Source of the DNA: a virus
Reading direction: 5' to 3' (one strand)
DNA length: 36,157 bases
IMG/VR virus record: IMGVR_UViG_3300046507_000321
Coordinates: 1 to 36,157 of that record
Positions 447-36,157 of this stretch are shown here, piece by piece. Positions within the stretch are counted from its first letter, which is position 1; each line of letters starts with the position of its first letter. A program made the position numbers and the translations under genes. The notes under the pieces were generated by a model, which was given only the letters and a program-made list of their open reading frames with translations, had not been told where the DNA came from and did no database searches.

Positions 447-1244
447 TTACCTTGGTTGTGTTATTGAAACAATGTTAAATACCTGTAGGCAATCGTCTAA
501 ATTAAGTTCAAAATCCGGGTAACGGTCCTTGTCTGGATTTAATGAATGGCAGGTTATAATTCCTTTTTCTACATCATGTTTAGTGATCCGTTTTGTAAAA
601 ATTCCATCCTTGTGAACGATTACGTAATCCTGGTATTTATGGATATGGAATTTACTTTTCCAGTAATGCCGCTGTATTACCCTGCCAGTAACTATGTACC
701 CTTCTTTAATGGATTCGTCCGTCCCATTATTCATACTATCGCCTTCTACGATAAAAGCCCTGTATTTGCCTCTATACATTTTCGATACTACGAATGAATG
801 CTTATCGAAGTTTTCTTTTAAATATGGCTCGTCGCTATAATGCTCTATGTAACCTGCCTGGGCTTTGACTGGAACTAATTCGACAATCATTATATATTGA
901 CCATGCCCGATATCAATAAAGTCCGATTCATTATCCGTGTGTTGTATATCTCCCGGGACAGCTTGAGTATCCGGTTCCGGTCTTTTGCCGTACTGTACCA
1001 TACCCTCTTTAGGGGAAGCTAATAAATCAGTTTTATATCTGGGGCCTTTATCGAATAATAGCCAATCAAGATTATAGGTCGGGAAAGCTTTTGAAAGTAG
1101 GTTTAATGTAGGGGACTTAAATGAACCGGGATCGTCTGAGTTAACAATCTTTGACAGGTTGCCGGGGTCCATCTCCATGGCCCTGGCAGCTACCTTACTA
1201 GTTGTATATTCTTTCTTAATGGCGGTCTTTAAGTTTTCTAACAT
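447..1244 (-). CDS. CI/LexA-type phage repressor (HTH plus S24 peptidase)
   Basis: A 265-residue leftward protein. Residues about 5-65 look like a helix-turn-helix DNA-binding domain (TSKVAARAMEMDPGNLSKIV). Residues about 115-265 form an S24/LexA-type self-cleavage domain. The likely cleavage pair is A130-G131 in VKAQAGY; the nucleophile is S170 in VEGDSM and the general base is probably K218 in FTKRI. In this family, RecA-stimulated self-cleavage inactivates the repressor and induces the prophage. The gene is divergent from the early operon, and TGTATNATTGTA repeats in the gap at 1279-1315 and at 1599-1630 are good operator candidates. The wide S-K spacing compared with LexA suggests a small insertion. 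The call as the lysogeny master repressor is strong, but its operators are inferred. Confidence 0.87.
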   Translation of the reverse strand: MLENLKTAIKKEYTTSKVAARAMEMDPGNLSKIVNSDDPGSFKSPTLNLLSKAFPTYNLDWLLFDKGPRYKTDLLASPKEGMVQYGKRPEPDTQAVPGDIQHTDNESDFIDIGHGQYIMIVELVPVKAQAGYIEHYSDEPYLKENFDKHSFVVSKMYRGKYRAFIVEGDSMNNGTDESIKEGYIVTGRVIQRHYWKSKFHIHKYQDYVIVHKDGIFTKRITKHDVEKGIITCHSLNPDKDRYPDFELNLDDCLQVFNIVSITQPR

Positions 1245-8815: not shown

Positions 8816-9157
8816 ATGAGTTTAAAAGTTGCTACGGTCTGTAGCGGTATTGGTAGCCCTGAAGTGGCGATAAACGAATTAGGCATAGATCATGAAATTG
8901 TATTTGCCTGCGACATTGACAAGTACGCCAGATCTTCTTACCTGGCAAATCACAAAGCCGGAATGATGCTTACCGATATGACCAAAGAAGATTGGATAGG
9001 CGAGCAGTTTTACAGTGATATTTTTATAGGCGGCATCCCTTGCCAGGCATTCAGCTTAGCCGGTAAACGTTTGGGGGAGCTTGATAAAAGAGGTTTGTTG
9101 TTTTATGATTTTTTACCGGTACGTAAAAAATCAGCAACCAAAAGTTTTTATAATTGA
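8816..9157 (+). CDS. dcm: DNA cytosine-C5 methyltransferase, 5' part (frameshifted)
   Basis: The 5' part of a C5 methyltransferase. It carries motif I (VCSGIGSPEVA, SAM binding) and motif IV with the catalytic Cys (GGIPCQAFSLAG). It then reaches RGLLFYDF and leaves frame at a run of six T (9109-9114), stopping at 9155-9157. The conserved sequence continues in the +1 frame (YRYVKN...). Five T would restore one frame. I prefer the ATG at 8816; a GTG at 8780 directly after the previous stop would add 12 residues. The break may be a real inactivating or phase-type mutation, a +1 slippage site, or a homopolymer read error. Confidence 0.82.
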   Translation: MSLKVATVCSGIGSPEVAINELGIDHEIVFACDIDKYARSSYLANHKAGMMLTDMTKEDWIGEQFYSDIFIGGIPCQAFSLAGKRLGELDKRGLLFYDFLPVRKKSATKSFYN

Positions 9158-10250
9158 AAACGTAAAAGGCCTATTATCTGACAATAACGGCAGAACATTC
9201 CAGAACTGGTGCCAGCTATTAGGGCAAAGCATGAATACGCACTACAACATGTTTAATCATGAAGATAGTTTGCTTTATAACCTACACTATACCGTTCTAA
9301 ACTCCAAAGATTACGGGGTGCCCCAAAATAGAGAAAGGGTGTTTTTAATCGGAATACGCAATGATCTACCGAACACCTTCAGGTTTCCAAAGGGTGAGCG
9401 TTTGAAATTAAGGCTTAAAGATATTTTAGAACCGGCTGTTGATGAAAAATATTATTTGAGTGAAAAACTTATTAATGGCTTTTTAAACCATAAGGATAGA
9501 CATTCTGAAAAAGGGACAGGGTTTATTTTTAGCCCAAAAACAGGCGATGATATTGCAAGTTGCCTTCGGGCTAATGCCGCACTTTGTCCAACTGATAACA
9601 CAATCCTTGAAGATAGCGTTTTAGTTTCAAAAGAACGCCGTACCGAAGAGGCAAAAGCACAAAGAAGGGCAACCGGCTCAAACGATTTCAGGGGTAAAGA
9701 AATAACTTTTGAGCCCTCAGTCGTTATGAATTGTTTGCAGACCGGGTTAACTAATGATCATTTAATTATGGTTAAAGAGGCAACCGTAAAAGGTTACGCA
9801 ATAGCCGGTGAGGGTGATAGTATCAACTTTTTGCATCCAAATAGCGAAACCCGAAAAGGCCGCGTGGGTAAGGGTATCGCCAATACCATAGACACGGGGT
9901 GTAATCAGGCGGTTGTTGTGAGTGAACTTCAGGTTGTGGGCAATTTACCGGGGAATAACGAAATGAGAAGTCGTGTTTATTCTGATAATGGGTTAAGCCC
10001 AACAATAACGGCAAAGCAGGGCGGTGGCCATGAGCCTAAGATTACTACACAGCGACGTATTAGAAGATTAACCCCTTTAGAGTGTTGGCGTTTGCAGGGA
10101 TTCCCTGATAGCTATTTTCATAACGCTGCAAAGATCACTTCAGATAGCCAGCTTTATAAACAAGCTGGGAATTCTATGACAACAAAGGTCATGAAAGCAA
10201 TTATCGGTAATTTATTGCCGGTCCTGAATGAAAATAAAGTTGCATGTTAA
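9081..10250 (+). CDS. dcm: DNA cytosine-C5 methyltransferase, 3' part (frameshifted)
   Basis: The 3' part of the methyltransferase, with homology from about 9114 (YRYVKNQQPKVFIIENVKGL). It has motif VI (ENV), motif VIII (YGVPQNRERVFLIGIR) and motifs IX-X (RRLTPLECWRLQGFP; QAGNSMTTKVM). Between them is a long target-recognition region with internal repeats of the type found in phage enzymes (LSPTITAKQGGG). The nearest ATG, 9081, lies in the wrong context for a real start, so the part probably has no function alone. Joined to the 5' part it would be a complete, normal-size enzyme of about 478 residues. It overlaps the next gene by 7 bp. Confidence 0.82.
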   Translation: MIKEVCCFMIFYRYVKNQQPKVFIIENVKGLLSDNNGRTFQNWCQLLGQSMNTHYNMFNHEDSLLYNLHYTVLNSKDYGVPQNRERVFLIGIRNDLPNTFRFPKGERLKLRLKDILEPAVDEKYYLSEKLINGFLNHKDRHSEKGTGFIFSPKTGDDIASCLRANAALCPTDNTILEDSVLVSKERRTEEAKAQRRATGSNDFRGKEITFEPSVVMNCLQTGLTNDHLIMVKEATVKGYAIAGEGDSINFLHPNSETRKGRVGKGIANTIDTGCNQAVVVSELQVVGNLPGNNEMRSRVYSDNGLSPTITAKQGGGHEPKITTQRRIRRLTPLECWRLQGFPDSYFHNAAKITSDSQLYKQAGNSMTTKVMKAIIGNLLPVLNENKVAC

Positions 10251-17363: not shown

Positions 17364-17461
17364 TTATTAATTATGAAATCAGGTCACGGGCCAAGACAAA
17401 GAGTTTTGAAGATATTATAATTAATAACCTTTTTACCGACATCGGCAATATGGTAATTGCA

Positions 17462-17527
17462 AGTAAAAACTATTTTACTATTTGACAAGTTTGTTTTACA
17501 TATTGTCGAAGATTATTATTATATTTG
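17462..17527 (+). promoter_or_regulatory. Late control region before terminase genes
   Basis: AGTAAAA-ACTA-TTTTACT (17462-17479) is a perfect inverted repeat. It is followed by AGTTTGTTTTACAT and then TATATTTG (17520-17527), a match to the Bacteroidota -7 box TAnnTTTG. A near copy of this set occurs at 22406-22467 before the protease/capsid genes. A -33 box is not convincing. The small terminase ATG is 20 bp downstream. Confidence 0.65.
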
Positions 17528-17547: not shown

Positions 17548-18003
17548 ATGCCAGCAGGAAGGCCAAGAACATTTACGGTTGAAGAATTCTCTCAAGCATG
17601 GGATGATTATTTCAATTGGGTTGATAATAACCCCTGGTATAAGAACGAAGCTATTAAAGCCGGTGAGAATGCCGGAATGATCATAAAGATACCTACAGCC
17701 AGACCATATTCTGAGATCGGTTTTTGTGCTTACAATGATTTAGGGGAGCATTATATTAATCAACTTGCCAAGTCATTAGAGGGCAGAGAAGATGAAGAAA
17801 GCCAACAATTTTCGTATATCTTAACACGGGCACGGGCAAAATGTAAAAGCCAAAAGTTTGAGGGCGCTGCTGTTGGAGCCTTTAATGCAAATATCATAGC
17901 AAGGGATTTGGGTTTAGCTGATAAGAACCAGGTCGATCATACAACGAACGGGAAGGATATAGTTGCGATAAGGGTTGTTGATATAGATGGATCTGAAATT
18001 TAA
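17548..18003 (+). CDS. terS: Terminase small subunit
   Basis: A 151-residue protein in the terminase small-subunit position, overlapping TerL by 17 bp. It begins MPAGRPRTFTVEEFSQAWDD. An upstream ATG at 17482 is in frame but crosses the promoter element, so the start at 17548 is better. The middle has a DNA-binding/oligomerisation-type helical region and a conserved-looking ILTRARAKCKSQKFEGAAVG. Small subunits bind the packaging site and hand DNA to the large subunit. The assignment rests mainly on position and general sequence. Confidence 0.78.
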   Translation: MPAGRPRTFTVEEFSQAWDDYFNWVDNNPWYKNEAIKAGENAGMIIKIPTARPYSEIGFCAYNDLGEHYINQLAKSLEGREDEESQQFSYILTRARAKCKSQKFEGAAVGAFNANIIARDLGLADKNQVDHTTNGKDIVAIRVVDIDGSEI

Positions 18004-19312
18004 GACATTCGAAAAACAACGTACCGCACTCAGACGGTTAAGAGATAATTCCACTAACGAGGTTTTATATGGTGGTGGTGCCCGTGGTGGTAAATCATGG
18101 CTAGGCACAGGATGGGTGATAATGGAATGTATTCAAAAGCCTAAATCATCATGGTTAATTGCAAGGGAAGAACTTACCAAACTTAAAGATACTACACTAA
18201 TAACCTTTTTTAAGGTCGCTTCTGATTTGGGCATAAGAGATCAGTTTGATTACAATGCTCAAAGCAATACCGCTATATTCACCAACGGTTCAATTATCTT
18301 TTTCAGGGAATTAAAATACATACCGTCCGATCCCGAATTTGACAGGATTGGATCTTATGACCTTACCGGTTGTTTTATCGATGAATCGCAGCAGATACAC
18401 CCAAAGGCAATAAGTGTGTTACGTGGTAGGTTCTCAGTGTTATCTGGTGAAGGATGGAAAACTATCCCTAAATCATTATATACCTGTAACCCGGCAAAAA
18501 ATTGGATCTATACAGAATTTGTAAAGCCAGAGAAGGATAATACATTGCCATTTCACAGGGCATTTATTAAATCACTTGCAACAGACAATCCAACGGTATC
18601 GCCTGACTATATATCCAACTTAATGAAGTCGGATAAAGTTACAAGGGAAAGGCTTTTACATGGTAATTTTGAATATGACGATGATCCATCGGCCCTAATG
18701 TCATTCGATAAGATAACAGACATTTTTACCAATTCATTTGTACCTGGTGGCGAGAAATATATAACGGCAGATATTGCCCGTTTCGGTGGTGATAAAACGG
18801 TTATCGGTATCTGGGATGGGTTAAGGCTTATCCATGTAGAAACAATGGCTAAGAACAGCGTTACGCAGGCAACGGAAGAAATTATAAGATTAGCAGGTAA
18901 ATACCAGGTGCCTATATCCAATATTATTTGTGACGAGGATGGTGTAGGAGGCGGTTGCGTTGATATCCTAAACTGTAACGGATTCGTAAACAATAGCACA
19001 GCTTTACCTAATCCCGAAACAGGCGAACAGGAGAACTACAACCACCTAAAAAGCCAGTGTTATTTCAAGTTGGCCGAACTGGTGAACGGCAGCAAGATTT
19101 ACCTGAATATAACGGACATTTCAATAAAATCAGACCTGATCCAAGAGCTTGAACAGGTTAAACAGCATAACATGGATAAGGACGCCAAGCGGCAGGTTAT
19201 TCCAAAAGATAAAGTAAAAGAGATATTAGGCAGATCACCGGACATTTCCGATATGGTAATGATGCGTATGTGGTTTGAGTACAGACGTGAAAGAGTATTT
19301 TATATAGCATAA
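17987..19312 (+). CDS. terL: Terminase large subunit
   Basis: A 441-residue packaging motor. The ATPase half has Walker A GGGARGGKS (29-37), Walker B GCFIDE (128-133) and a coupling motif at CNP (167-169). The nuclease half has carboxylates at D262 (TADIARFGGDK), around D317-D319 (ICDEDGVGGG) and D422 (ISDMVMM), giving an RNase H-like fold. It cuts concatemers and drives DNA into the prohead. It overlaps TerS at the 5' end and ends 1 bp before the portal gene. The family is clear; whether packaging is headful or cohesive-end is not visible from it. Confidence 0.95.
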   Translation: MDLKFKTFEKQRTALRRLRDNSTNEVLYGGGARGGKSWLGTGWVIMECIQKPKSSWLIAREELTKLKDTTLITFFKVASDLGIRDQFDYNAQSNTAIFTNGSIIFFRELKYIPSDPEFDRIGSYDLTGCFIDESQQIHPKAISVLRGRFSVLSGEGWKTIPKSLYTCNPAKNWIYTEFVKPEKDNTLPFHRAFIKSLATDNPTVSPDYISNLMKSDKVTRERLLHGNFEYDDDPSALMSFDKITDIFTNSFVPGGEKYITADIARFGGDKTVIGIWDGLRLIHVETMAKNSVTQATEEIIRLAGKYQVPISNIICDEDGVGGGCVDILNCNGFVNNSTALPNPETGEQENYNHLKSQCYFKLAELVNGSKIYLNITDISIKSDLIQELEQVKQHNMDKDAKRQVIPKDKVKEILGRSPDISDMVMMRMWFEYRRERVFYIA

Positions 19313-19313
19313 T

Positions 19314-20765
19314 ATGGCGTGGTGGAATAATGTGAAAGGGGTGCGTATGGCGTCCGAACAGGAAAGTAAAATGCTTGCAGAAATTGAAGGCATTAAAGCT
19401 CAGTTACAAACGGGAGTATTGCCGAAAGACCAGGCGAATCTACTCAATCAGATGGTTTACTCATTCTTTAACAATGGCGGTGTAAGCTATTTGCCTTATA
19501 ACTCGCAAACCTACGTTAAGGAAGGGTACATGAGTAATGAGATCATCTACTCGATTGTAACCCGTATTCTTGACAAAAAGAAGATAGCGCCACTGGAACT
19601 ATTAAAAAAGGTTCCAGATCAAAAGAGCGCATTGCTTAAGTACAAATCATTTAAGTACGACAGCAAGCCAACGAGCCAGGCAATGAAATCTTCTTTCAGG
19701 AAGAAAGCTTTGGAAGAAATTGAAAAAGGCGATCTTAACGACCTGCTTCAACGGCCAAACCCACAGCAAAACACGGAAGAGTTTATTGAAGCCGCTGCCG
19801 GTTTCTGGAACCTCTGTGGGGAGGTGTTTATTTATGGCGTATCACCAGAAAATGGCCCGAATGCCGGATGCTTTAAAGAACTATATGTACTGCCTTCTCA
19901 TTTGGTTGAGATTGTTCAGGGTGACGTATTTGAGCCGGTAAGAGGGTATAAGCTTTTAATTGGTGAGCAGAAAATAGAAATCCCCGCGGCTAATGTATTA
20001 CACATGAAGCGTTGGAATCCGTTTTGGGATTTATCCGGCACGCAATTACGCGGCCAATCACCATTAAGGGCAGGAGTAAAGCGTTTAGCGATTAATAACA
20101 AGTCAATTGATTTCCGTGGAGGTGCTTTAGAAAACGGTGGTGTAGCCGGACTGATCACGCCAAGGGATGAAAAGACAAACTGGCAACCAGGGCAGGTTAA
20201 CGCGATTAACGATAAGGTTAAGGATAAGATACTAGGATCAGACAACGCAAACAAGATCATTGCTTTCTCGCAGTCGGTTGATTATACGCAAGTCGGCATG
20301 TCACCGGTTGATCTGCAGGTTTTAGAAGGGATGCGCGACGATGTACCGGGGCTTTGTGGTTTGTGGGGTTTCCCTCCAGTGTTATTAGGTTATAAGGACG
20401 CAACCTTTGAGAACCAGGAGAAAGCGCAAAAGGCTTTGGTTTCCAATATCTGTTTGCCGTTCTATAACAACTTTGAAAACAAGTTAGTCAATTGGCTAAT
20501 GCCAGCTTATAACAAGCGGGATAAATGCGAATATGTAGTTGATTTTGATACTACGGTTTTTGCAGAGCTTCAGCCGGACCTTAAACTAATCAAAGAAGTA
20601 TTTGGCAACAGCTACCAGGTGAAAGGAAACGAATACAGGGAAATGATCGGCCTTGAAGAAGATCCCGACATGGATAAGTTTTTTATCCCTAACAACCTTA
20701 TGAGCTTAGATGAATTCAATTCAGTTGATCAACCTATTGATCCAAACGCACAGCAAGATTATTAA
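19314..20765 (+). CDS. Portal protein
   Basis: A 483-residue portal, the ring at the DNA-entry vertex. HK97-family features: a start YLPYNSQTYVKEGYMSNEII, a clip region around VLPSHLVEIVQGDVFEPVRG and LHMKRWNPFWDLSGTQLRGQ, and the end VVDFDTTVFAELQPDLKLIK. Length is typical for the family. Its stop overlaps the next start (TAATG). Placement between TerL and the head genes supports the call. Confidence 0.9.
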   Translation: MAWWNNVKGVRMASEQESKMLAEIEGIKAQLQTGVLPKDQANLLNQMVYSFFNNGGVSYLPYNSQTYVKEGYMSNEIIYSIVTRILDKKKIAPLELLKKVPDQKSALLKYKSFKYDSKPTSQAMKSSFRKKALEEIEKGDLNDLLQRPNPQQNTEEFIEAAAGFWNLCGEVFIYGVSPENGPNAGCFKELYVLPSHLVEIVQGDVFEPVRGYKLLIGEQKIEIPAANVLHMKRWNPFWDLSGTQLRGQSPLRAGVKRLAINNKSIDFRGGALENGGVAGLITPRDEKTNWQPGQVNAINDKVKDKILGSDNANKIIAFSQSVDYTQVGMSPVDLQVLEGMRDDVPGLCGLWGFPPVLLGYKDATFENQEKAQKALVSNICLPFYNNFENKLVNWLMPAYNKRDKCEYVVDFDTTVFAELQPDLKLIKEVFGNSYQVKGNEYREMIGLEEDPDMDKFFIPNNLMSLDEFNSVDQPIDPNAQQDY

Positions 20766-21595
20766 TGCCATCTGATAAACACATATCAAGAGTATTCGCT
20801 CAACGTCACAGGCAGTATGAGAAGCGCTCACAACGTGCTTATCTAGCTGCCTTAAACGCCCAGGTAAACGAGGCGGCTAAGCACCTGCCTAATATTGTCG
20901 CGTTCACCAATGCGATCAACAACTTATCACCCGAGCCGGTAAAAATCGCCTTCCAGAAATGCTACAAATCTATTATCCTTGACGCAGGCGGGCAGCAATT
21001 AGCAGAGCTTCACCGCAACATCGGGCAAAAGGGCGTGTTTGATACGTCTTTCTATAAATCAGACTGGATAAAGAGGCTTAAGGATTGGTACGATGAACAC
21101 GGAGGCAACAGGGTAAAGGAAATCACCGAAACTACCAAGCGCAGGTTAAGAGACGCATTAAAAAATAGTTATACCGATAATGAAGGAATGAGCAACCAGG
21201 AGCGGGCAAAGCTGATCTATGACGAAATATCCGATCCGGATTATAATAGATACCGCTCGCTAGTGATTGCGCGTACAGAGGCCACAACAGCCGCGAACCT
21301 GGGCCATTCTATTGCAGCCGATAGTTTATCAGACAGGCTTAACATGAAATTGGAGAAAAGATGGATTCCGACCATTGACAGCCGTACCCGTGACGCGCAC
21401 GAATTAATGCTACTTTCACCTACCATCGATAAGGATGAATTGTTTGATGTAGGAGGGGAGTTACTGGCTCAGCCTGGTGATCCTGCAGGAAGCGCAAGAA
21501 ATGTAATTAACTGTAGATGCAGGGTTGTTTATACGGTGGTTAGAAATTCAAGCGGTAGGATCATGCCGAATGAGTTAGAAAGCATCAGCGTTTAG
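20765..21595 (+). CDS. Mu F-like head morphogenesis protein
   Basis: A 276-residue protein related to the Phage_Mu_F family. The C-terminal part has the diagnostic YRSLVIARTEATTAANLGHS, WIPTIDSRTRDAHELM, QPGDPAGS and NVINCRCRVVYTV. Such proteins are minor head proteins attached to the portal. The N-terminal ~110 residues are helical. Its last 21 bp overlap the convergent DUF4468 gene, a common sign of a gene captured into the head operon. Confidence 0.88.
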   Translation: MPSDKHISRVFAQRHRQYEKRSQRAYLAALNAQVNEAAKHLPNIVAFTNAINNLSPEPVKIAFQKCYKSIILDAGGQQLAELHRNIGQKGVFDTSFYKSDWIKRLKDWYDEHGGNRVKEITETTKRRLRDALKNSYTDNEGMSNQERAKLIYDEISDPDYNRYRSLVIARTEATTAANLGHSIAADSLSDRLNMKLEKRWIPTIDSRTRDAHELMLLSPTIDKDELFDVGGELLAQPGDPAGSARNVINCRCRVVYTVVRNSSGRIMPNELESISV

Positions 21596-22129
21596 GTTAC
21601 TCATGTTTGATTTAAGGCTTTGAATTAAGTTCCTAACTTTCGTATCGGCAAAGATAAATTCCTTTTCATAGCGTTTGATTGCCGCCTTCTTGCTTTCGAA
21701 TGGAAGCTTTTTCACTTCATCATGAAGATAATGGCTATATCCTTCGGATATCTGGTAAACGGAGCCGCCGCCATCCATGGTGAGATCATAAACCCTGTAT
21801 CTGTATTTACCGTCCTTAATATCAACCGCTATGGTGTAGTTAAAATAAGAGTTGGTATTATAACCAAATCCGGCTTGAAATAGCTCTGATCCTTTACCGA
21901 TCAATTGATGGCTTACTCTGTCGTTAACCCTTAATACCGATTTTGAGTTATTAAATGTATTTGCAAACCATGTCTGAGCAAGCGTAAAGAGCCTATCTGC
22001 GGATGCTGTTGAATCCTTGATTACAACAACTTCTTCATAGACTATAGCACTATCTTTTAAAGGGAGTTCTATTTTTTGCGCCTTGGCGAACAGAGGTAAT
22101 AAGAATAGGATAAGGATAAGTTTCTTCAT
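21575..22129 (-). CDS. Secreted DUF4468 protein (leftward cargo gene)
   Basis: A 184-residue protein with an N-terminal signal peptide (MKKLILILFLLPLFAKAQ, cleavage after Ala-17 or nearby). The mature region has the DUF4468/TBP-like pattern of Bacteroidota: VNDRVSHQLIGKGSELF, then YFNYTIAVDIKDGKYRYRVY and ISEGYSHYLHDEVKKLP. It is exported and perhaps periplasmic. It lies opposite in direction to the head genes and convergently overlaps the Mu-F-like gene by 21 bp. It has no structural role by homology. It is probably a cargo gene expressed from its own promoter in the lysogen, altering the host envelope. Confidence 0.8.
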   Translation of the reverse strand: MKKLILILFLLPLFAKAQKIELPLKDSAIVYEEVVVIKDSTASADRLFTLAQTWFANTFNNSKSVLRVNDRVSHQLIGKGSELFQAGFGYNTNSYFNYTIAVDIKDGKYRYRVYDLTMDGGGSVYQISEGYSHYLHDEVKKLPFESKKAAIKRYEKEFIFADTKVRNLIQSLKSNMSNLNADAF

Positions 22130-22175
22130 ATAACAAATAAGAGCGGACTAATATAGAAAGGTTTAATTAATCTAC

Positions 22176-22334
22176 TCAATTTTTCTTCAATTTAACTCTT
22201 TCGTATATAAACTTACAGCAACCCATACTCAAAGCGGCCCCGGTAATAACGTAGTATTTGCCAAGCTTGACCATTAACCGGCCATTCCTACCAACGTAAT
22301 GTTCGCTTATTTCTTTGAATTCCTGTTTACTCAT
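22176..22334 (-). CDS. Small membrane-like protein of the cargo unit
   Basis: A 52-residue leftward frame: MSKQEFKEISEHYVGRNGRL, then MVKLGKYYVITGAALSMGCC and a basic tail (KFIYERVKLKKN). The segment YYVITGAALSMGCC looks like a membrane or lipid-facing helix, with two adjacent cysteines. It sits 46 bp upstream of the DUF4468 gene in the same direction, so they probably form one small leftward unit. Confidence 0.5.
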   Translation of the reverse strand: MSKQEFKEISEHYVGRNGRLMVKLGKYYVITGAALSMGCCKFIYERVKLKKN

Positions 22335-22405: not shown

Positions 22406-22467
22406 AAACTATGTAAAAAATATTTTACATTTTGTATAGTTTGTTTGACATTAAATACTTATATTAG
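22406..22467 (+). promoter_or_regulatory. Late control region before protease/capsid genes
   Basis: ATGTAAAA-AATA-TTTTACAT (22411-22430) is a perfect 8-bp inverted repeat with a 4-bp loop. It is nested in AAACTAT...ATAGTTT (22406-22412, 22436-22442). AGTTTGTTTGACAT follows, and then TTATATTAG (22459-22467), a promoter-like box. The order matches 17462-17527. It may also control the leftward cargo genes, which start just left of it. Confidence 0.65.
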
Positions 22468-22500: not shown

Positions 22501-23154
22501 ATGAATTTTAAGCAGTTTGCGCAGGTCGTAGATGATTTAGAGCCAAAGCAGGGTATAATTAAAGCTTATGCCAACGCTTATAATAATGTTGATAGCGATA
22601 ACGACATATCGGCACCTGGTAGTTTTACCAAAACAGTAACAGAAAACTTTAAAAGAATTAGGGTCCTTAAAGACCACAATTCTACTATTACTCTTGGCGT
22701 TCCAAAAGAACTAAACGCCTCTGATCCATACGGCTTAAACACTATTACCCAGTTCAACATGAACAAAGAGGTAAGCCGGGATATGTTCACCGATATACAA
22801 CTAATGAAAGAGAACGGCCAGAACGCTGAACTTTCTATTGGTTATTCAATCGTTTCACGGGATCAAAAAGACAAAAGAATTATCAACGAGTATAAGCTTT
22901 ACGAATATTCGTTTTTATCAAGCTGGGCGGCTAATCCATTGGCTATTGCAACCGATCTGAAAGGCTTAAAAAGTCCAGCATACCTTATTGAGCTATTAAC
23001 CAAAGCTTACAACATGCCCTATTCGGATGGTAAGCTTGAGCAGATAGAAAAAATCTTAAAATCACTCACCGAAGAGCCGGGCCGAGACACCACTCAGACA
23101 GTAGAGCCGATGGAGTTAAGTAAATTATTTAAAAACGCTTTCAAACTAAACTAA
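22501..23154 (+). CDS. HK97-type prohead protease
   Basis: A 217-residue U35-type prohead maturation protease. Key parts: AYANAYNNVDSDNDISAPGS (residues 22-41), RIRVLKDHN with H59, SIGYSIV with S112, and EYSFLSSWAANPLA. The His and Ser correspond to the catalytic pair in HK97 gp4. It removes the N-terminal scaffold region of the capsid protein and itself. It is immediately upstream of the capsid gene, 4 bp apart. Confidence 0.9.
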   Translation: MNFKQFAQVVDDLEPKQGIIKAYANAYNNVDSDNDISAPGSFTKTVTENFKRIRVLKDHNSTITLGVPKELNASDPYGLNTITQFNMNKEVSRDMFTDIQLMKENGQNAELSIGYSIVSRDQKDKRIINEYKLYEYSFLSSWAANPLAIATDLKGLKSPAYLIELLTKAYNMPYSDGKLEQIEKILKSLTEEPGRDTTQTVEPMELSKLFKNAFKLN

Positions 23155-32335: not shown

Positions 32336-33340
32336 GTGATTAAGGGTAAAGATCTGTTTTTATATATTAAGGTGGCTGGCGTTCCAACTGCCGTAGCTTA
32401 CGCTCAAAATTGTGAGCAAACAATTACAGCAGACGCTATTGAGTGTACCACTTTCGGAAGCAATTCCTTCAAGGATTATGTGTATGGAGATCGCGGTTAT
32501 ACGCTCACTCATACCGGCTTAACAACAATTCAAAAAAACTATTCTTCTTTAGCGCTTCAACAAGCGATCATTAACGGCACCAAAATAGATTTTGTTTTTG
32601 GTGGACTAGATCCCGCGAATGGTGTATTCTATTCCGGTACGTGTATGATTACACAAACCGATTTAGATAGCTCTTATGATGGGATTTCTACGTTTAAAGC
32701 AACTCTTTTAGGTTGCGGGGCATTGGCAATCAATCAATCAACAACCACTACAACTATATACGCCAAAGGATTTAACGGTAGTGTTATCCCATCGTGTGCC
32801 GTTGGTGGTACACCAAGTACTTTATTCCCTTGTGGGGTTTATAACGTAAATGGAGTTTATTTAGGGGCGGCAACTACTGCAGCAAACGTTGTAACGCTTT
32901 GGAACGCTGATACAGTGAACCAGACTTACGGCGTATTGAGTGCAGGGCCGAACGGGTGCAGTTATGTTTTAACAAGTCCTTTTTCTGTAGATAGATTACC
33001 TGACTTTATTTTATTGGAAGCTGGCTTTAGTTTATACTACGGTCCATCTGCTGCGATACCGGTTACTGGCTCTGATATTCTGGCGTTAAATCAAACCATT
33101 TTCGCACCAAGCTTAACATTAAATACTGGCACCACTAATTCAGTATTCAGTATTGTCATACAAACAAGCAAAACAATTTCAGCGGTCACAGATCTTGACG
33201 CAGGAGGATTCAGTGATATTAAATCGCTTTATACAGTCCAGGGAACGGTCACGATTAGCGAGGTAGTTTATAATATTTATACAATGGTAAATGCTTTACC
33301 ATATTCAACCAATCACAGACATCAATTTACTTTAAACTAA
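32336..33340 (+). CDS. Tail-tube-like protein with long C-terminal extension
   Basis: A 334-residue protein. Residues 1 to about 133 look like a tail tube domain (MIKGKDLFLYIKVAGVPTAV; ADAIECTTFGSNSFKDYVYG; FVFGGLDPANGVF), a second copy of that fold besides 26750. Residues about 140-334 are beta-rich (CAVGGTPSTLFPCGVYNVNG; GCSYVLTSPF) without a known family. It starts at GTG. It may be a tip or fibre-base subunit built on a tube fold. Its stop (TAATG) overlaps the fibre start. Confidence 0.68.
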   Translation: MIKGKDLFLYIKVAGVPTAVAYAQNCEQTITADAIECTTFGSNSFKDYVYGDRGYTLTHTGLTTIQKNYSSLALQQAIINGTKIDFVFGGLDPANGVFYSGTCMITQTDLDSSYDGISTFKATLLGCGALAINQSTTTTTIYAKGFNGSVIPSCAVGGTPSTLFPCGVYNVNGVYLGAATTAANVVTLWNADTVNQTYGVLSAGPNGCSYVLTSPFSVDRLPDFILLEAGFSLYYGPSAAIPVTGSDILALNQTIFAPSLTLNTGTTNSVFSIVIQTSKTISAVTDLDAGGFSDIKSLYTVQGTVTISEVVYNIYTMVNALPYSTNHRHQFTLN

Positions 33341-36157
33341 TGGCGGGGTACGAAATAGCCGGGGGGATTAAGAATTTACAGGGAGGGCCATTAGATACAT
33401 TAAGAGGCCCATACGCAGACGTAGCAACAGCGTGTGCGGCTATTCCAAACACTGTCATTAGCGGGGTTAACTATAGACTCGGTAAAACCGTGGAAATTGG
33501 CACACCTGGGAATTTAGTAACCTATTGGTGGAAAGGAACCGGTAATTTCCTAGACACTGATTTAGTCCCTACATACAATGACGCTGTTGCGGTAGTTCAG
33601 CCAACAATCGACGTAGTAAACAGGTCTATTCAAAAAGATACCGCCAACCCGATTGAAACAAAGAACTATTCAACCGGTGCTTTATCGTTGTCGACTTTTG
33701 GTGCAAGCACGGATATTTATGCATGGGGATTCCCTATCGGTGTAAAGCCTGAGTTTAAAAAGATAGGCTTAAAAATAGGTACAAGGGGGACTGATCTTAC
33801 TTCGGTTCAGGTCCGCATAAAAGAGATTAATGCCAGCGGAACTGTATTGGCAACGAAAACGCAAACGGTTGCTGTGCCCGCTAGTACGGGCTCTATAGAT
33901 TTGTTTGTAACCCTGGATGCTTCCGTAATTTCCACTAAGCGGCTATATATGGAGGTTCTTGGTAATGCGCCTTTGTACGTATTTCGTACCGGTACAACCG
34001 CCTCAATATTTACCGCCGCAGCCGGGTATCCTATAACGGTTTCCAGCACGACAAACAACATGAGCCAAACGCTGCCGACATCGGGCAGTAACCTTGATAT
34101 TGGATCGTTTGCTTATGAGATAACCTATAATATCATAGGTACGTCGGAGCTTACAAAGATCATCCAAAACACACCGTTAATACTACCGCAGCCGGTTTCC
34201 GACGCTTCAACAGTTACAAACCAGGTGCTTAAAATGTCACCTGTCCAACAGGCTGACTTTGTTTCAACGCCGGACGCCATCGGCCCGCAGGGCGGTACGT
34301 TTTACGGGATAGGTTTCCCGGTTGGGGTTATTCAGAATTTTGACCGGGTTTCAGTAAAAATTTATCAGTCCGCAAGTTCAACGCCTGCACCAACCAAAAT
34401 AAAACTTGTTTTAAGGAAAGTTAATCATGCCGGGGCCATCGTTGCAACGGCTGAATTAACGGGCCTTTCATTGGTGTTAAACGCCAATCAACTAACCTGG
34501 GTGTTTGATAGTATTGTACAAAACACTGCCGGTGACAGGCTTTATCTGGAAATGTTTTCAGATGGTAAATTAGGGGCTTACAGGCGTACCGGATCATCAG
34601 GAATTACGTTTATCGCCGCGAATGGTTACCCGCCATTTGCAACAACTACTACAACCGACGCTTATACCACAAGCGCATTAACGGACACAGCAACCTTTTA
34701 CGATTTTTGGTTTGATTTTACGCAGTTCGTCTACATGCCAGCCTTTACCGAAACGGGTAGGACATTGTTTGGCACTTCCGGCAGCAGTGGTGGCGGTACA
34801 TCATTACCGGCAAATAATAAACGCTTTTCTTTTGCCGGTAGCTCGGTAACATGGGGTGATGGATTTTTGCAGAGTGGTTTTGTAAGGGATGCTATTAAGC
34901 GTATTCAATTAGCCGCACAGACCATATTACCGACCGGCTTAGCTATAACGGGCCAAACTGCAAAAACATACCTGACAGATAGAAAACTGTTTTATAGTAC
35001 AGGAATTAAGATCGATGGATTGAACGCAGAAGCGGCCTTTAGTATAACCGGTGACGAGTTAACCATTTGCCAGCAGATCCAGCGGAACAACACTAACGCA
35101 TCGGTAATGCAGGTATATGCAGATAACGTACTGATCGGCACATTTAACAACTTTAATAATACGGCCATAGGTACAGCAACCGCTAATTTCACCGGTGACG
35201 GAACCACAACAAAGTTTGACTTAGGCAGATGCTTTACTTTCGGCCATACTTTGACTGTTGGCGGCGTGTCGAAAGTGATCGATATGAATACGCAAGGTTC
35301 CAGTTATGCTTTCCCTGGCACTACAGATGCGGTGATCGTTCGCAAATATGGTAATGACAGCAATGGTAAGCCGGTTGTGCATCACTGGGTATACTTTAAG
35401 GTTGCACCGGCAAGCGGAGCGGCTATTGTGATTCCTTATAGCTATGGCGAAGAGATCAGCTATGAAAAAACTACCGTTGGCAAAACAGCGACAGGCATTT
35501 TAGAAAGCTCTTATGGTGATGGTGACCTAAGCTTCGACACTACAGCGCCAACAGCGGTTTCAAGTGGTTTGGATTTCCGCAGAACGGATGACCGGTCTAT
35601 TGTACAATTCAGGTTTACCGACAACAAAACAAGGGCTATCCGGATCAAGATAAGCGGTAACTATGGCTCTGCATCAGGCACGCCTTATTTCACGTTCAAC
35701 TTTGCAACAAACAAATTTTACCACTTCCAGAATGCAGGAATTGGGGGGTATGAAATATTTGCCCTTGCAAATAACCTAGACATTGAAAACAATCTTTCAT
35801 GGCAACGGATCACCGAATTTAGGCCGGATTACCTGATCATTGACACTGCGCCAAACGAGGATTGGAACGTGCAGGGCCACAAGCTTTACACCAGCTTTGC
35901 GGGTACTTCCTTAACTGATTTGCGCAGGCAGGTAACGATGCCATTGAGAACGATCACTTATAATTCAGGTCCCGACAATTACGACTGGACGCGATGGGTT
36001 GGAAAAATATCAGCTATCGACGATACCAGTGTAACGCTGCAGGTTGACAGCACCCACGTAGTCGCAACCAATCCCGTACAGGGCGATTTGATGCTGATCG
36101 GCAGTTATTATGGTGATAACCGGGAATGTATAGCCCGTATTGTTGATACCTACAACA
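33340..36157 (+). CDS. Tail fibre / receptor-binding protein with SGNH hydrolase signature (truncated)
   Basis: At least 939 codons, open to the window edge. The N-terminal part is of phage-fibre type (GPYADVATACAAIPNTVISG). Two related beta-sandwich units follow, anchored at WGFPIGV (about residue 129) and GIGFPVGV (about 323), 195 residues apart. A GDSL block I is at FAGSSVTWGDG (residues 498-508, likely nucleophile S502) and a likely block III at DYLIIDTAPNEDW (830-842; N839, D841), with a long insert between. The catalytic Asp-His block lies off the edge. SGNH hydrolases on tails deacetylate surface glycans; this role is inferred. The start overlaps the preceding stop. Confidence 0.8.
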   Translation, partial: MAGYEIAGGIKNLQGGPLDTLRGPYADVATACAAIPNTVISGVNYRLGKTVEIGTPGNLVTYWWKGTGNFLDTDLVPTYNDAVAVVQPTIDVVNRSIQKDTANPIETKNYSTGALSLSTFGASTDIYAWGFPIGVKPEFKKIGLKIGTRGTDLTSVQVRIKEINASGTVLATKTQTVAVPASTGSIDLFVTLDASVISTKRLYMEVLGNAPLYVFRTGTTASIFTAAAGYPITVSSTTNNMSQTLPTSGSNLDIGSFAYEITYNIIGTSELTKIIQNTPLILPQPVSDASTVTNQVLKMSPVQQADFVSTPDAIGPQGGTFYGIGFPVGVIQNFDRVSVKIYQSASSTPAPTKIKLVLRKVNHAGAIVATAELTGLSLVLNANQLTWVFDSIVQNTAGDRLYLEMFSDGKLGAYRRTGSSGITFIAANGYPPFATTTTTDAYTTSALTDTATFYDFWFDFTQFVYMPAFTETGRTLFGTSGSSGGGTSLPANNKRFSFAGSSVTWGDGFLQSGFVRDAIKRIQLAAQTILPTGLAITGQTAKTYLTDRKLFYSTGIKIDGLNAEAAFSITGDELTICQQIQRNNTNASVMQVYADNVLIGTFNNFNNTAIGTATANFTGDGTTTKFDLGRCFTFGHTLTVGGVSKVIDMNTQGSSYAFPGTTDAVIVRKYGNDSNGKPVVHHWVYFKVAPASGAAIVIPYSYGEEISYEKTTVGKTATGILESSYGDGDLSFDTTAPTAVSSGLDFRRTDDRSIVQFRFTDNKTRAIRIKISGNYGSASGTPYFTFNFATNKFYHFQNAGIGGYEIFALANNLDIENNLSWQRITEFRPDYLIIDTAPNEDWNVQGHKLYTSFAGTSLTDLRRQVTMPLRTITYNSGPDNYDWTRWVGKISAIDDTSVTLQVDSTHVVATNPVQGDLMLIGSYYGDNRECIARIVDTYN

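What the first reader, a model, noticed from the sequence alone, without database searches (positions are those of the whole stretch)
21575..22334. Leftward cargo pair (secreted DUF4468 protein and small membrane-like protein) inside the head operon
Both genes run against the packaging/head genes. One has a signal peptide and a Bacteroidota host-type DUF4468 domain, and the 3' end overlaps the Mu-F-like gene. This is a lysogenic-conversion candidate affecting the host envelope, perhaps blocking superinfection. No DUF4468 function is established.
Basis: partly seen in the sequence, partly recalled or inferred. Interest (0 to 1): 0.6.

Follow-up and report, generated by a model that had tools for sequence, protein, structure and literature searches.

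The report
Prophage-type envelope cargo between head genes
A phage of Bacteroidota bacteria carries a small backwards-facing gene pair, one of whose proteins is exported to the cell envelope, in a variable cargo slot between its head genes; relatives of that protein often sit beside prophage repressors and integrases, so it probably changes the infected host's surface, perhaps to keep rival phages out.

Summary
The pair is real. A 184-aa exported DUF4468 protein (21575-22129, -) and a 52-aa ORF (22176-22334, -) run against the head genes, overlap the Mu-F-like gene by 21 bp, and are under purifying selection (dN/dS about 0.07 against the one close relative). The 'small membrane-like protein' label is not supported.

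They sit in a hypervariable slot between Mu-F and prohead protease. Of 68 distinct relatives, 33 have under 100 bp there and 35 carry up to 3.9 kb of cargo; only this phage and its sister carry DUF4468. The slot lies between two late transcription units: the same control palindrome stands before the terminase unit and before the protease unit, in both phages.

DUF4468 relatives lie downstream of a CI-like repressor in four loci (integrase behind it in three), beside an integrase in a fifth, and before the tape-measure gene in Flavobacterium and Acinetobacter phages. The model has the DUF4468 fold; BamC's N-terminal domain is next.

Best reading: a moron cassette made in the lysogen, acting in the envelope, most likely as superinfection exclusion. 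The exclusion step is inference. Against it: no expression data, a weak leftward promoter, and phi18:1, which has leftward slot genes but no reported lysogeny genes.

The parts
21575..22129 (-). DUF4468 protein, 184 aa, type I signal peptide (residues 1-17 by eye); DUF4468 / helix-grip fold
22176..22334 (-). 52-aa ORF, first gene of the leftward pair; no family, no homologue outside L001 found; three helices at low confidence
21575..21595 (.). 21-bp tail-to-tail overlap of DUF4468 with the Mu-F-like ORF
   Evidence: the same arrangement in L001
22383..22386 (-). candidate -33 box TTTG of the leftward promoter
   Evidence: inside a block that is 59 of 60 identical in L001
22358..22365 (-). candidate -7 box TAATTTTC (5 of the 6 key positions of TAnnTTTG), 31 nt before the small ORF's ATG
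   Evidence: consensus from PMC6847099 passages
22410..22453 (+). control element with palindrome GTAAAAAATATTTTAC (22413-22428), between the leftward pair and the protease
   Evidence: also in L001
22460..22467 (+). candidate -7 box TATATTAG (5 of 6) of the protease/capsid unit
   Evidence: sequence; position by inspection
17460..17503 (+). twin control element (33 of 44 identical) before the terminase unit; palindrome GTAAAAACTATTTTAC at 17463-17478
   Evidence: same element before the terminase of L001
17520..17527 (+). TATATTTG, exact -7 box before the terminase unit
20765..21595 (+). Mu-F-like head morphogenesis gene, left wall of the slot
22501..23154 (+). prohead protease (Peptidase_S78), right wall of the slot
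447..1244 (-). S24/CI-like repressor, same strand as the pair; suggests a temperate phage
   Evidence: Peptidase_S24 E=0.0029, below the Pfam cutoff; phrog_4 E=1.9e-11

Best explanation
The pair is a moron cassette in a cargo slot between the two late head-gene transcription units of a temperate Bacteroidota siphophage. Shown: position, orientation, coding constraint, the slot's variability, the DUF4468 fold, and relatives of the protein lying with repressors and integrases. Inferred: it has its own leftward promoter, is made in the lysogen, and the DUF4468 protein is exported by Sec into the periplasm. Inferred further: a helix-grip domain in the envelope interferes with entry of related phages (receptor assembly or DNA passage), so the function is superinfection exclusion. 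It would work like the exported exclusion proteins Ltp (lipoprotein) and Glo (soluble periplasmic), from a genome position like that of Tab (minus-strand late-region moron). The 52-aa protein may be a small accessory or regulatory partner; nothing shows what it does.
For: Slot: Mu-F-to-protease gap under 100 bp in 33 of 68 distinct relatives, 100 bp to 3.9 kb in 35 (7 further clusters without Mu-F on the contig were dropped). Contents differ and include GIY-YIG endonuclease, methyltransferase plus glycosyltransferase, PAPS-reductase-like protein, YopX-like protein, tRNAs and other exported or lipobox proteins by eye. DUF4468 falls only in this phage and L001 there. Transcription boundary: two exact GTAAAANNNNTTTTAC palindromes in the window and two in L001, before terminase and before protease; 0 of 200 simulations of either sequence had two. 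A TAnnTTTG box lies within 60 nt of the protease ATG in 27 of 76 distinct upstream regions, about 4 expected (not independent). Lysogeny: repressor then DUF4468 on one strand in L135 (45 nt), L138 (21 nt), L209 (114-aa gene between) and L251 (15 nt), with integrase downstream in L138, L209 and L251; integrase 23 nt downstream in L258. Tape-measure slot: 6H-type and L144 (one 182-aa ORF between in L144, 183- and 115-aa ORFs between in the 6H-type record L131), Acinetobacter phages AM106, qsb1 and MD-2021a. Export: signal peptide or lipobox in nearly all full-length phage copies by eye. Selection: dN/dS 0.073 and 0.066. Precedents: Tab minus-strand gene with its own promoter in the late region (PMC10884400 passages); Ltp in the lysogeny module and Glo periplasmic (PMC3952083 passages).
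Against: No expression or phenotype data. The leftward -7 box misses the G (TAATTTTC), and the generic sigma-70 scan found no excess of promoters (3 found, 5.0 expected). The pair faces away from a late control element, so it could be late-expressed. Cellulophaga phi18:1 has two leftward genes in the same slot, yet the paper reports no identifiable lysogeny genes and clear plaques (PMC11946311 passages), so leftward slot genes do not prove lysogeny. In this window DUF4468 is not in the lysogeny module. Of 38 genome regions fetched, my small marker set found repressor plus integrase beside DUF4468 in only L251 and, more loosely, L258. PADLOC gave no defence match. No integrase was found in the window; only 19 of its proteins were scanned with Pfam.
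Confidence: 0.45

Rival explanations
1. Lysogenic conversion without exclusion: the exported DUF4468 protein benefits the lysogen in some other way (envelope stability, outer-membrane biogenesis, attachment).
For: All lysogeny-module and export evidence fits equally. DUF4468 also occurs in genomes without repressor or integrase markers nearby. The fold resembles BamC, an outer-membrane assembly lipoprotein.
Against: Recurrence before the tape-measure gene and next to repressors is the pattern of known exclusion genes, but this does not exclude the rival.
Confidence: 0.28
2. Late lytic gene: the pair is switched on with the head genes from the shared control region and helps assembly, lysis or release through the envelope.
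For: The palindrome shared with the terminase unit lies between the pair and the protease. DUF4468 is co-oriented with late genes before the tape measure in 6H-type, L144 and Acinetobacter phages. phi18:1 carries leftward slot genes although no lysogeny genes are reported.
Against: Repressor-DUF4468-integrase order in prophages. Most relatives lack it. Leftward orientation would produce transcripts antisense to mu-F.
Confidence: 0.17
3. Antisense device: the leftward transcript, overlapping mu-F tail to tail, damps the head genes in the lysogen and the proteins matter little.
For: 21-bp overlap conserved in L001. No leftward terminator was seen.
Against: Strong purifying selection on both proteins and DUF4468 recurring in unrelated places.
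Confidence: 0.04

Closest known systems
Tab of Pseudomonas phage JBD26 (PMC10884400, passages read)
   Same: Minus-strand moron with its own promoter among late packaging genes, variable among relatives.
   Different: Tab is an 83-aa blocker of tail assembly acting on the tape measure, paired with a plus-strand anti-Tab; here the protein is exported and no plus-strand partner gene was seen in the slot.
Ltp of Streptococcus thermophilus TP-J34 (PMC3952083, passages read)
   Same: Exported prophage protein; DUF4468 relatives L138, L209 and L251 lie between repressor and integrase, in the lysogeny module like ltp.
   Different: Ltp is a lipoprotein of a Gram-positive; no sequence comparison was made; in this window the gene is in the head region.
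Glo of Vibrio phage K139 (PMC3952083 and PMC4870250, passages read)
   Same: Soluble periplasmic immunity/exclusion protein of a Gram-negative prophage.
   Different: Other sequence (not compared here) and other genome position.
Cellular DUF4468 proteins 4e6f (Bacteroides ovatus) and 4jhy (Parabacteroides distasonis)
   Same: Same fold, Z 14.2 and 15.3.
   Different: From bacterial genomes; function unknown.
BamC N-terminal domain (2yh6, 2laf)
   Same: First non-DUF4468 match in Foldseek (E 2e-4) and Z 9.0 over 105 residues.
   Different: 5% identity; Z hardly above plant PR-10 proteins (8.6), so a shared helix-grip arrangement only.

Membership tests
DUF4468 (PF14730 / phrog_4002) | Score above the curated cutoff | tested here: met
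   46.7 against 22.6 bits; phrog_4002 E=4.6e-23
DUF4468 (PF14730 / phrog_4002) | DUF4468 fold | tested here: met
   Z 14.2-15.3 to solved members; model pLDDT 77.9
Moron (accessory phage transcription unit) | Present in some, absent in close or syntenic relatives | tested here: met
   33 of 68 relatives have under 100 bp at the site; DUF4468 in 2 of 68
Moron (accessory phage transcription unit) | Own promoter | tested here: inconclusive
   TTTG plus TAATTTTC (5 of 6) in a block 59 of 60 conserved; not excess in the sigma-70 scan
Moron (accessory phage transcription unit) | Expressed from the prophage | not testable with these tools
   needs RNA-seq
Exported superinfection-exclusion protein (Ltp/Glo kind) | Export signal or lipid anchor | tested here: met
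   Signal peptide by eye in the window; lipobox in Acinetobacter copies
Exported superinfection-exclusion protein (Ltp/Glo kind) | Gene in the lysogeny module | tested here: not met
   Head region in this window; met in relatives L138, L209, L251
Exported superinfection-exclusion protein (Ltp/Glo kind) | Blocks infection by other phages | not testable with these tools
   needs plaque and DNA-entry assays
BamC | Sequence membership in a BamC family | tested here: not met
   DUF4468 was the only Pfam family at E<=1
Known anti-phage defence proteins (PADLOC) | Match to a defence model | tested here: not met
   No match at E<=1

The most novel reading that the evidence does not exclude
phrog_4002/DUF4468 is a widespread, unrecognised family of prophage-made envelope proteins, periplasmic in Bacteroidota and lipoproteins in Acinetobacter, that exclude competing phages by engaging outer-membrane assembly or the incoming tape measure. 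It travels between lysogeny modules, tape-measure slots and a head-gene cargo slot.
Probability: 0.28. Interest if true: 0.75.

Novelty: new variant of a known kind. Interest (0 to 1): 0.5.

Why it matters
DUF4468 has solved structures but no function; a full-text search found 2 papers naming it, and the one opened mentions it only as a low-probability fold hit. Its places in prophages (behind repressors, before integrases, before tape-measure genes, in a head-gene cargo slot) turn it into a testable candidate exclusion or conversion protein in two phyla. The slot itself is a place to look for further phage cargo in Bacteroidota, whose phage accessory genes are poorly known.

Tried and rejected
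Membrane nature of the 52-aa protein: not supported. Homologues of the 52-aa protein: none in 50,697 phage records, Pfam, PHROGs, NCBIfam or PADLOC. Solved structures by single sequence: no DUF4468 hit; by profile 4e6f and 4jhy. Terminator at 21692 (+): as expected by chance and its sequence is not kept in L001 (alignment, by eye). S24 repressor as binder of the palindrome: its own upstream region has no such palindrome. Tree of phage and genomic DUF4468: no single phage clade (6 changes; one origin is not ruled out by starred branches); the window pairs only with L001, all else is far. BamC function: fold match alone, Z tied with unrelated helix-grip proteins. The viral structure library gave a named DUF4468 phage protein (A0A8S5TNW8) but no function. 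Pooling slot neighbours by crude ORF calls (at least 40 aa) gave some doubtful leftward genes (L050, L065, L074, L114, L120); these remain in the 17, of which 7 have an exact TAnnTTTG. Slot counts use clusters at 95% protease identity; expectation figures ignore relatedness. The markers rest on few seeds (4 repressors, 2 integrases), so absence there is weak.

Full report
OBSERVATION. Two ORFs run leftward between the Mu-F-like gene (20765-21595, +) and the prohead protease (22501-23154, +): DUF4468 at 21575-22129 and a 52-aa ORF at 22176-22334. DUF4468 is above the Pfam cutoff and is phrog_4002. Its N-terminus reads as a type I signal peptide by eye. The stop codon lies inside mu-F, 21 bp deep. 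The one close relative in IMG/VR is L001 (the same contig came up). There the two proteins are 82% and 81% identical while Mu-F, portal and protease are 96-98% identical (capsid 76%); substitutions fall mostly on third positions, with dN/dS 0.073 and 0.066 and near-saturated dS. Both are therefore real genes. The small protein does not look like a membrane protein.

THE SLOT. I collected relatives through the protease, Cellulophaga and Flavobacterium phage records, two more distant phages and two Chryseobacterium genomes. In 68 distinct clusters with both flanking genes the gap is under 100 bp in 33, 100-299 in 8, 300-699 in 8, 700-1499 in 5 and 1500 or more in 14 (75 clusters in all, 7 lacking Mu-F on the contig). 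Contents include GIY-YIG endonuclease (L026), methyltransferase plus glycosyltransferase (L063), a PAPS-reductase-like protein (L073), YopX (L075), a ribbon-helix-helix-like protein below the Pfam cutoff (L009), and tRNAs in phi10:1. Leftward ORFs next to the protease are frequent: 17 were examined, 7 of them with an exact TAnnTTTG box 8-70 nt upstream (some of the 17 are doubtful ORFs). DUF4468 occurs in the slot only here and in L001.

CONTROL REGION. A 44-bp element at 22410 matches 33 of 44 positions at 17460, before the terminase unit; the best match in 30 block shuffles was 28. Its palindrome GTAAAANNNNTTTTAC occurs exactly twice in the window (17463, 22413) and twice in L001 (10637, 5702), in the same two places, although the first part of the terminase proteins differs between the phages; none of 200 first-order simulations of either sequence had two. 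At the terminase it is followed by an exact TATATTTG, the -7 box of Bacteroidota (consensus from passages of PMC6847099). Across relatives a TAnnTTTG lies within 60 nt before the protease ATG in 27 of 76 distinct upstream regions, against about 4 expected from base frequency, and a similar palindrome in 8 of 76 against about 0.5 (relatives are not independent). So the slot is a boundary between two late units, which would explain why cargo of either strand is tolerated there (inference). The leftward pair has a candidate promoter, TTTG then TAATTTTC, in a block 59 of 60 identical between the two phages; this is suggestive only.

WHERE DUF4468 LIVES ELSEWHERE. tblastn found it in 48 phage records: Acinetobacter 29, Cellulophaga 9, Flavobacterium 9, unnamed 1. 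In Acinetobacter phages AM106, qsb1 and MD-2021a it is the gene just before the tape measure, and in Ab105-2phi-type it is a few genes before it. In 6H-type phages and L144 a tape-measure gene also follows, with small ORFs between. In L135 and L138 it follows a CI-like repressor by 45 and 21 nt, and in L138 an integrase follows. In genomes of the Chryseobacterium group, L209 and L251 have repressor, DUF4468 and integrase in that order on one strand, and L258 has the integrase 23 nt behind it and a repressor-like HTH gene 1.2 kb before it. In that genus group 36 of 173 genomes carry the domain, so it is accessory; most of the 38 regions fetched showed no marker with my small set. The Acinetobacter copies are lipoproteins by eye and the Bacteroidota ones mostly have type I signals. 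L139, L140 and L055 lack a clear N-terminus.

FOLD. The model (15 sequences, pLDDT 77.9, core above 90) matches solved DUF4468 proteins at Z 14-15; BamC N-terminal domain is next at Z 9.0, with PR-10 proteins at 8.6. Foldseek also puts BamC directly after DUF4468. This fits a periplasmic or outer-membrane-side protein but does not show a function.

READING. Prophage-type neighbours, export, purifying selection and a minus-strand place in a late-gene slot together match known morons: Tab (minus strand, own promoter, between terminase genes; PMC10884400 passages), Ltp (exported, in the lysogeny module; PMC3952083 passages) and Glo (periplasmic; same passages). I therefore hold lysogen expression and an envelope role as likely, and superinfection exclusion as the likeliest single function, at about 0.45 overall. 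The main rivals are conversion without exclusion and a late lytic role. Counter-evidence is told above: phi18:1 has leftward slot genes without reported lysogeny genes, the promoter is weak, and the palindrome is shared with late genes.

NOVELTY. Morons, exclusion proteins and DUF4468 structures are known. New here, as far as the searches (listings seen, passages as cited) show, are the Mu-F/protease slot with its paired late control palindrome and the link of DUF4468 with repressor-integrase modules. I did not find either described, but the library holds open-licence papers only.

Noticed in passing
window 17460-17503 and 22410-22453; L001 5702-5717 and 10637-10652: Paired palindromic control element before the terminase and the protease units, probably a late activator site; the spacing to the -7 box differs by about one helical turn.
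   Followed up: yes
L049 6890-7081 (-), and slots of L061, L063, L075, L113, L117, L130: A recurring small leftward protein (MTESEVIN...YYIG-type) leads or nearly leads the leftward slot genes in several phages; one member was scanned and had no Pfam, NCBIfam or PADLOC family.
   Followed up: partly
slots of L063/L077, L064, L075, L130, phi18:1: A methyltransferase plus glycosyltransferase pair recurs in the slot, perhaps surface or DNA modification cargo (Pfam scan made on the L063 pair only).
   Followed up: partly
upstream of protease in L032, L034, L036, L040, L041, L047 and others: TAnnTTTG starts at -12 from the protease ATG, so the transcript would be almost leaderless.
   Followed up: no
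window 17987-19312 against L001 8824-10140: Terminase large subunits differ in the first part and are nearly identical in the last part, which points to recombination inside the gene.
   Followed up: no
L208 12015-13665 (Chryseobacterium indologenes genome): Three leftward ORFs in tandem, at least two with DUF4468, next to a rightward array with phage-type exonuclease genes.
   Followed up: partly
window 9081-10250 and 33340-36156: C5 cytosine methylase; the record's right end cuts an open frame of 939 aa, so the genome is incomplete.
   Followed up: no
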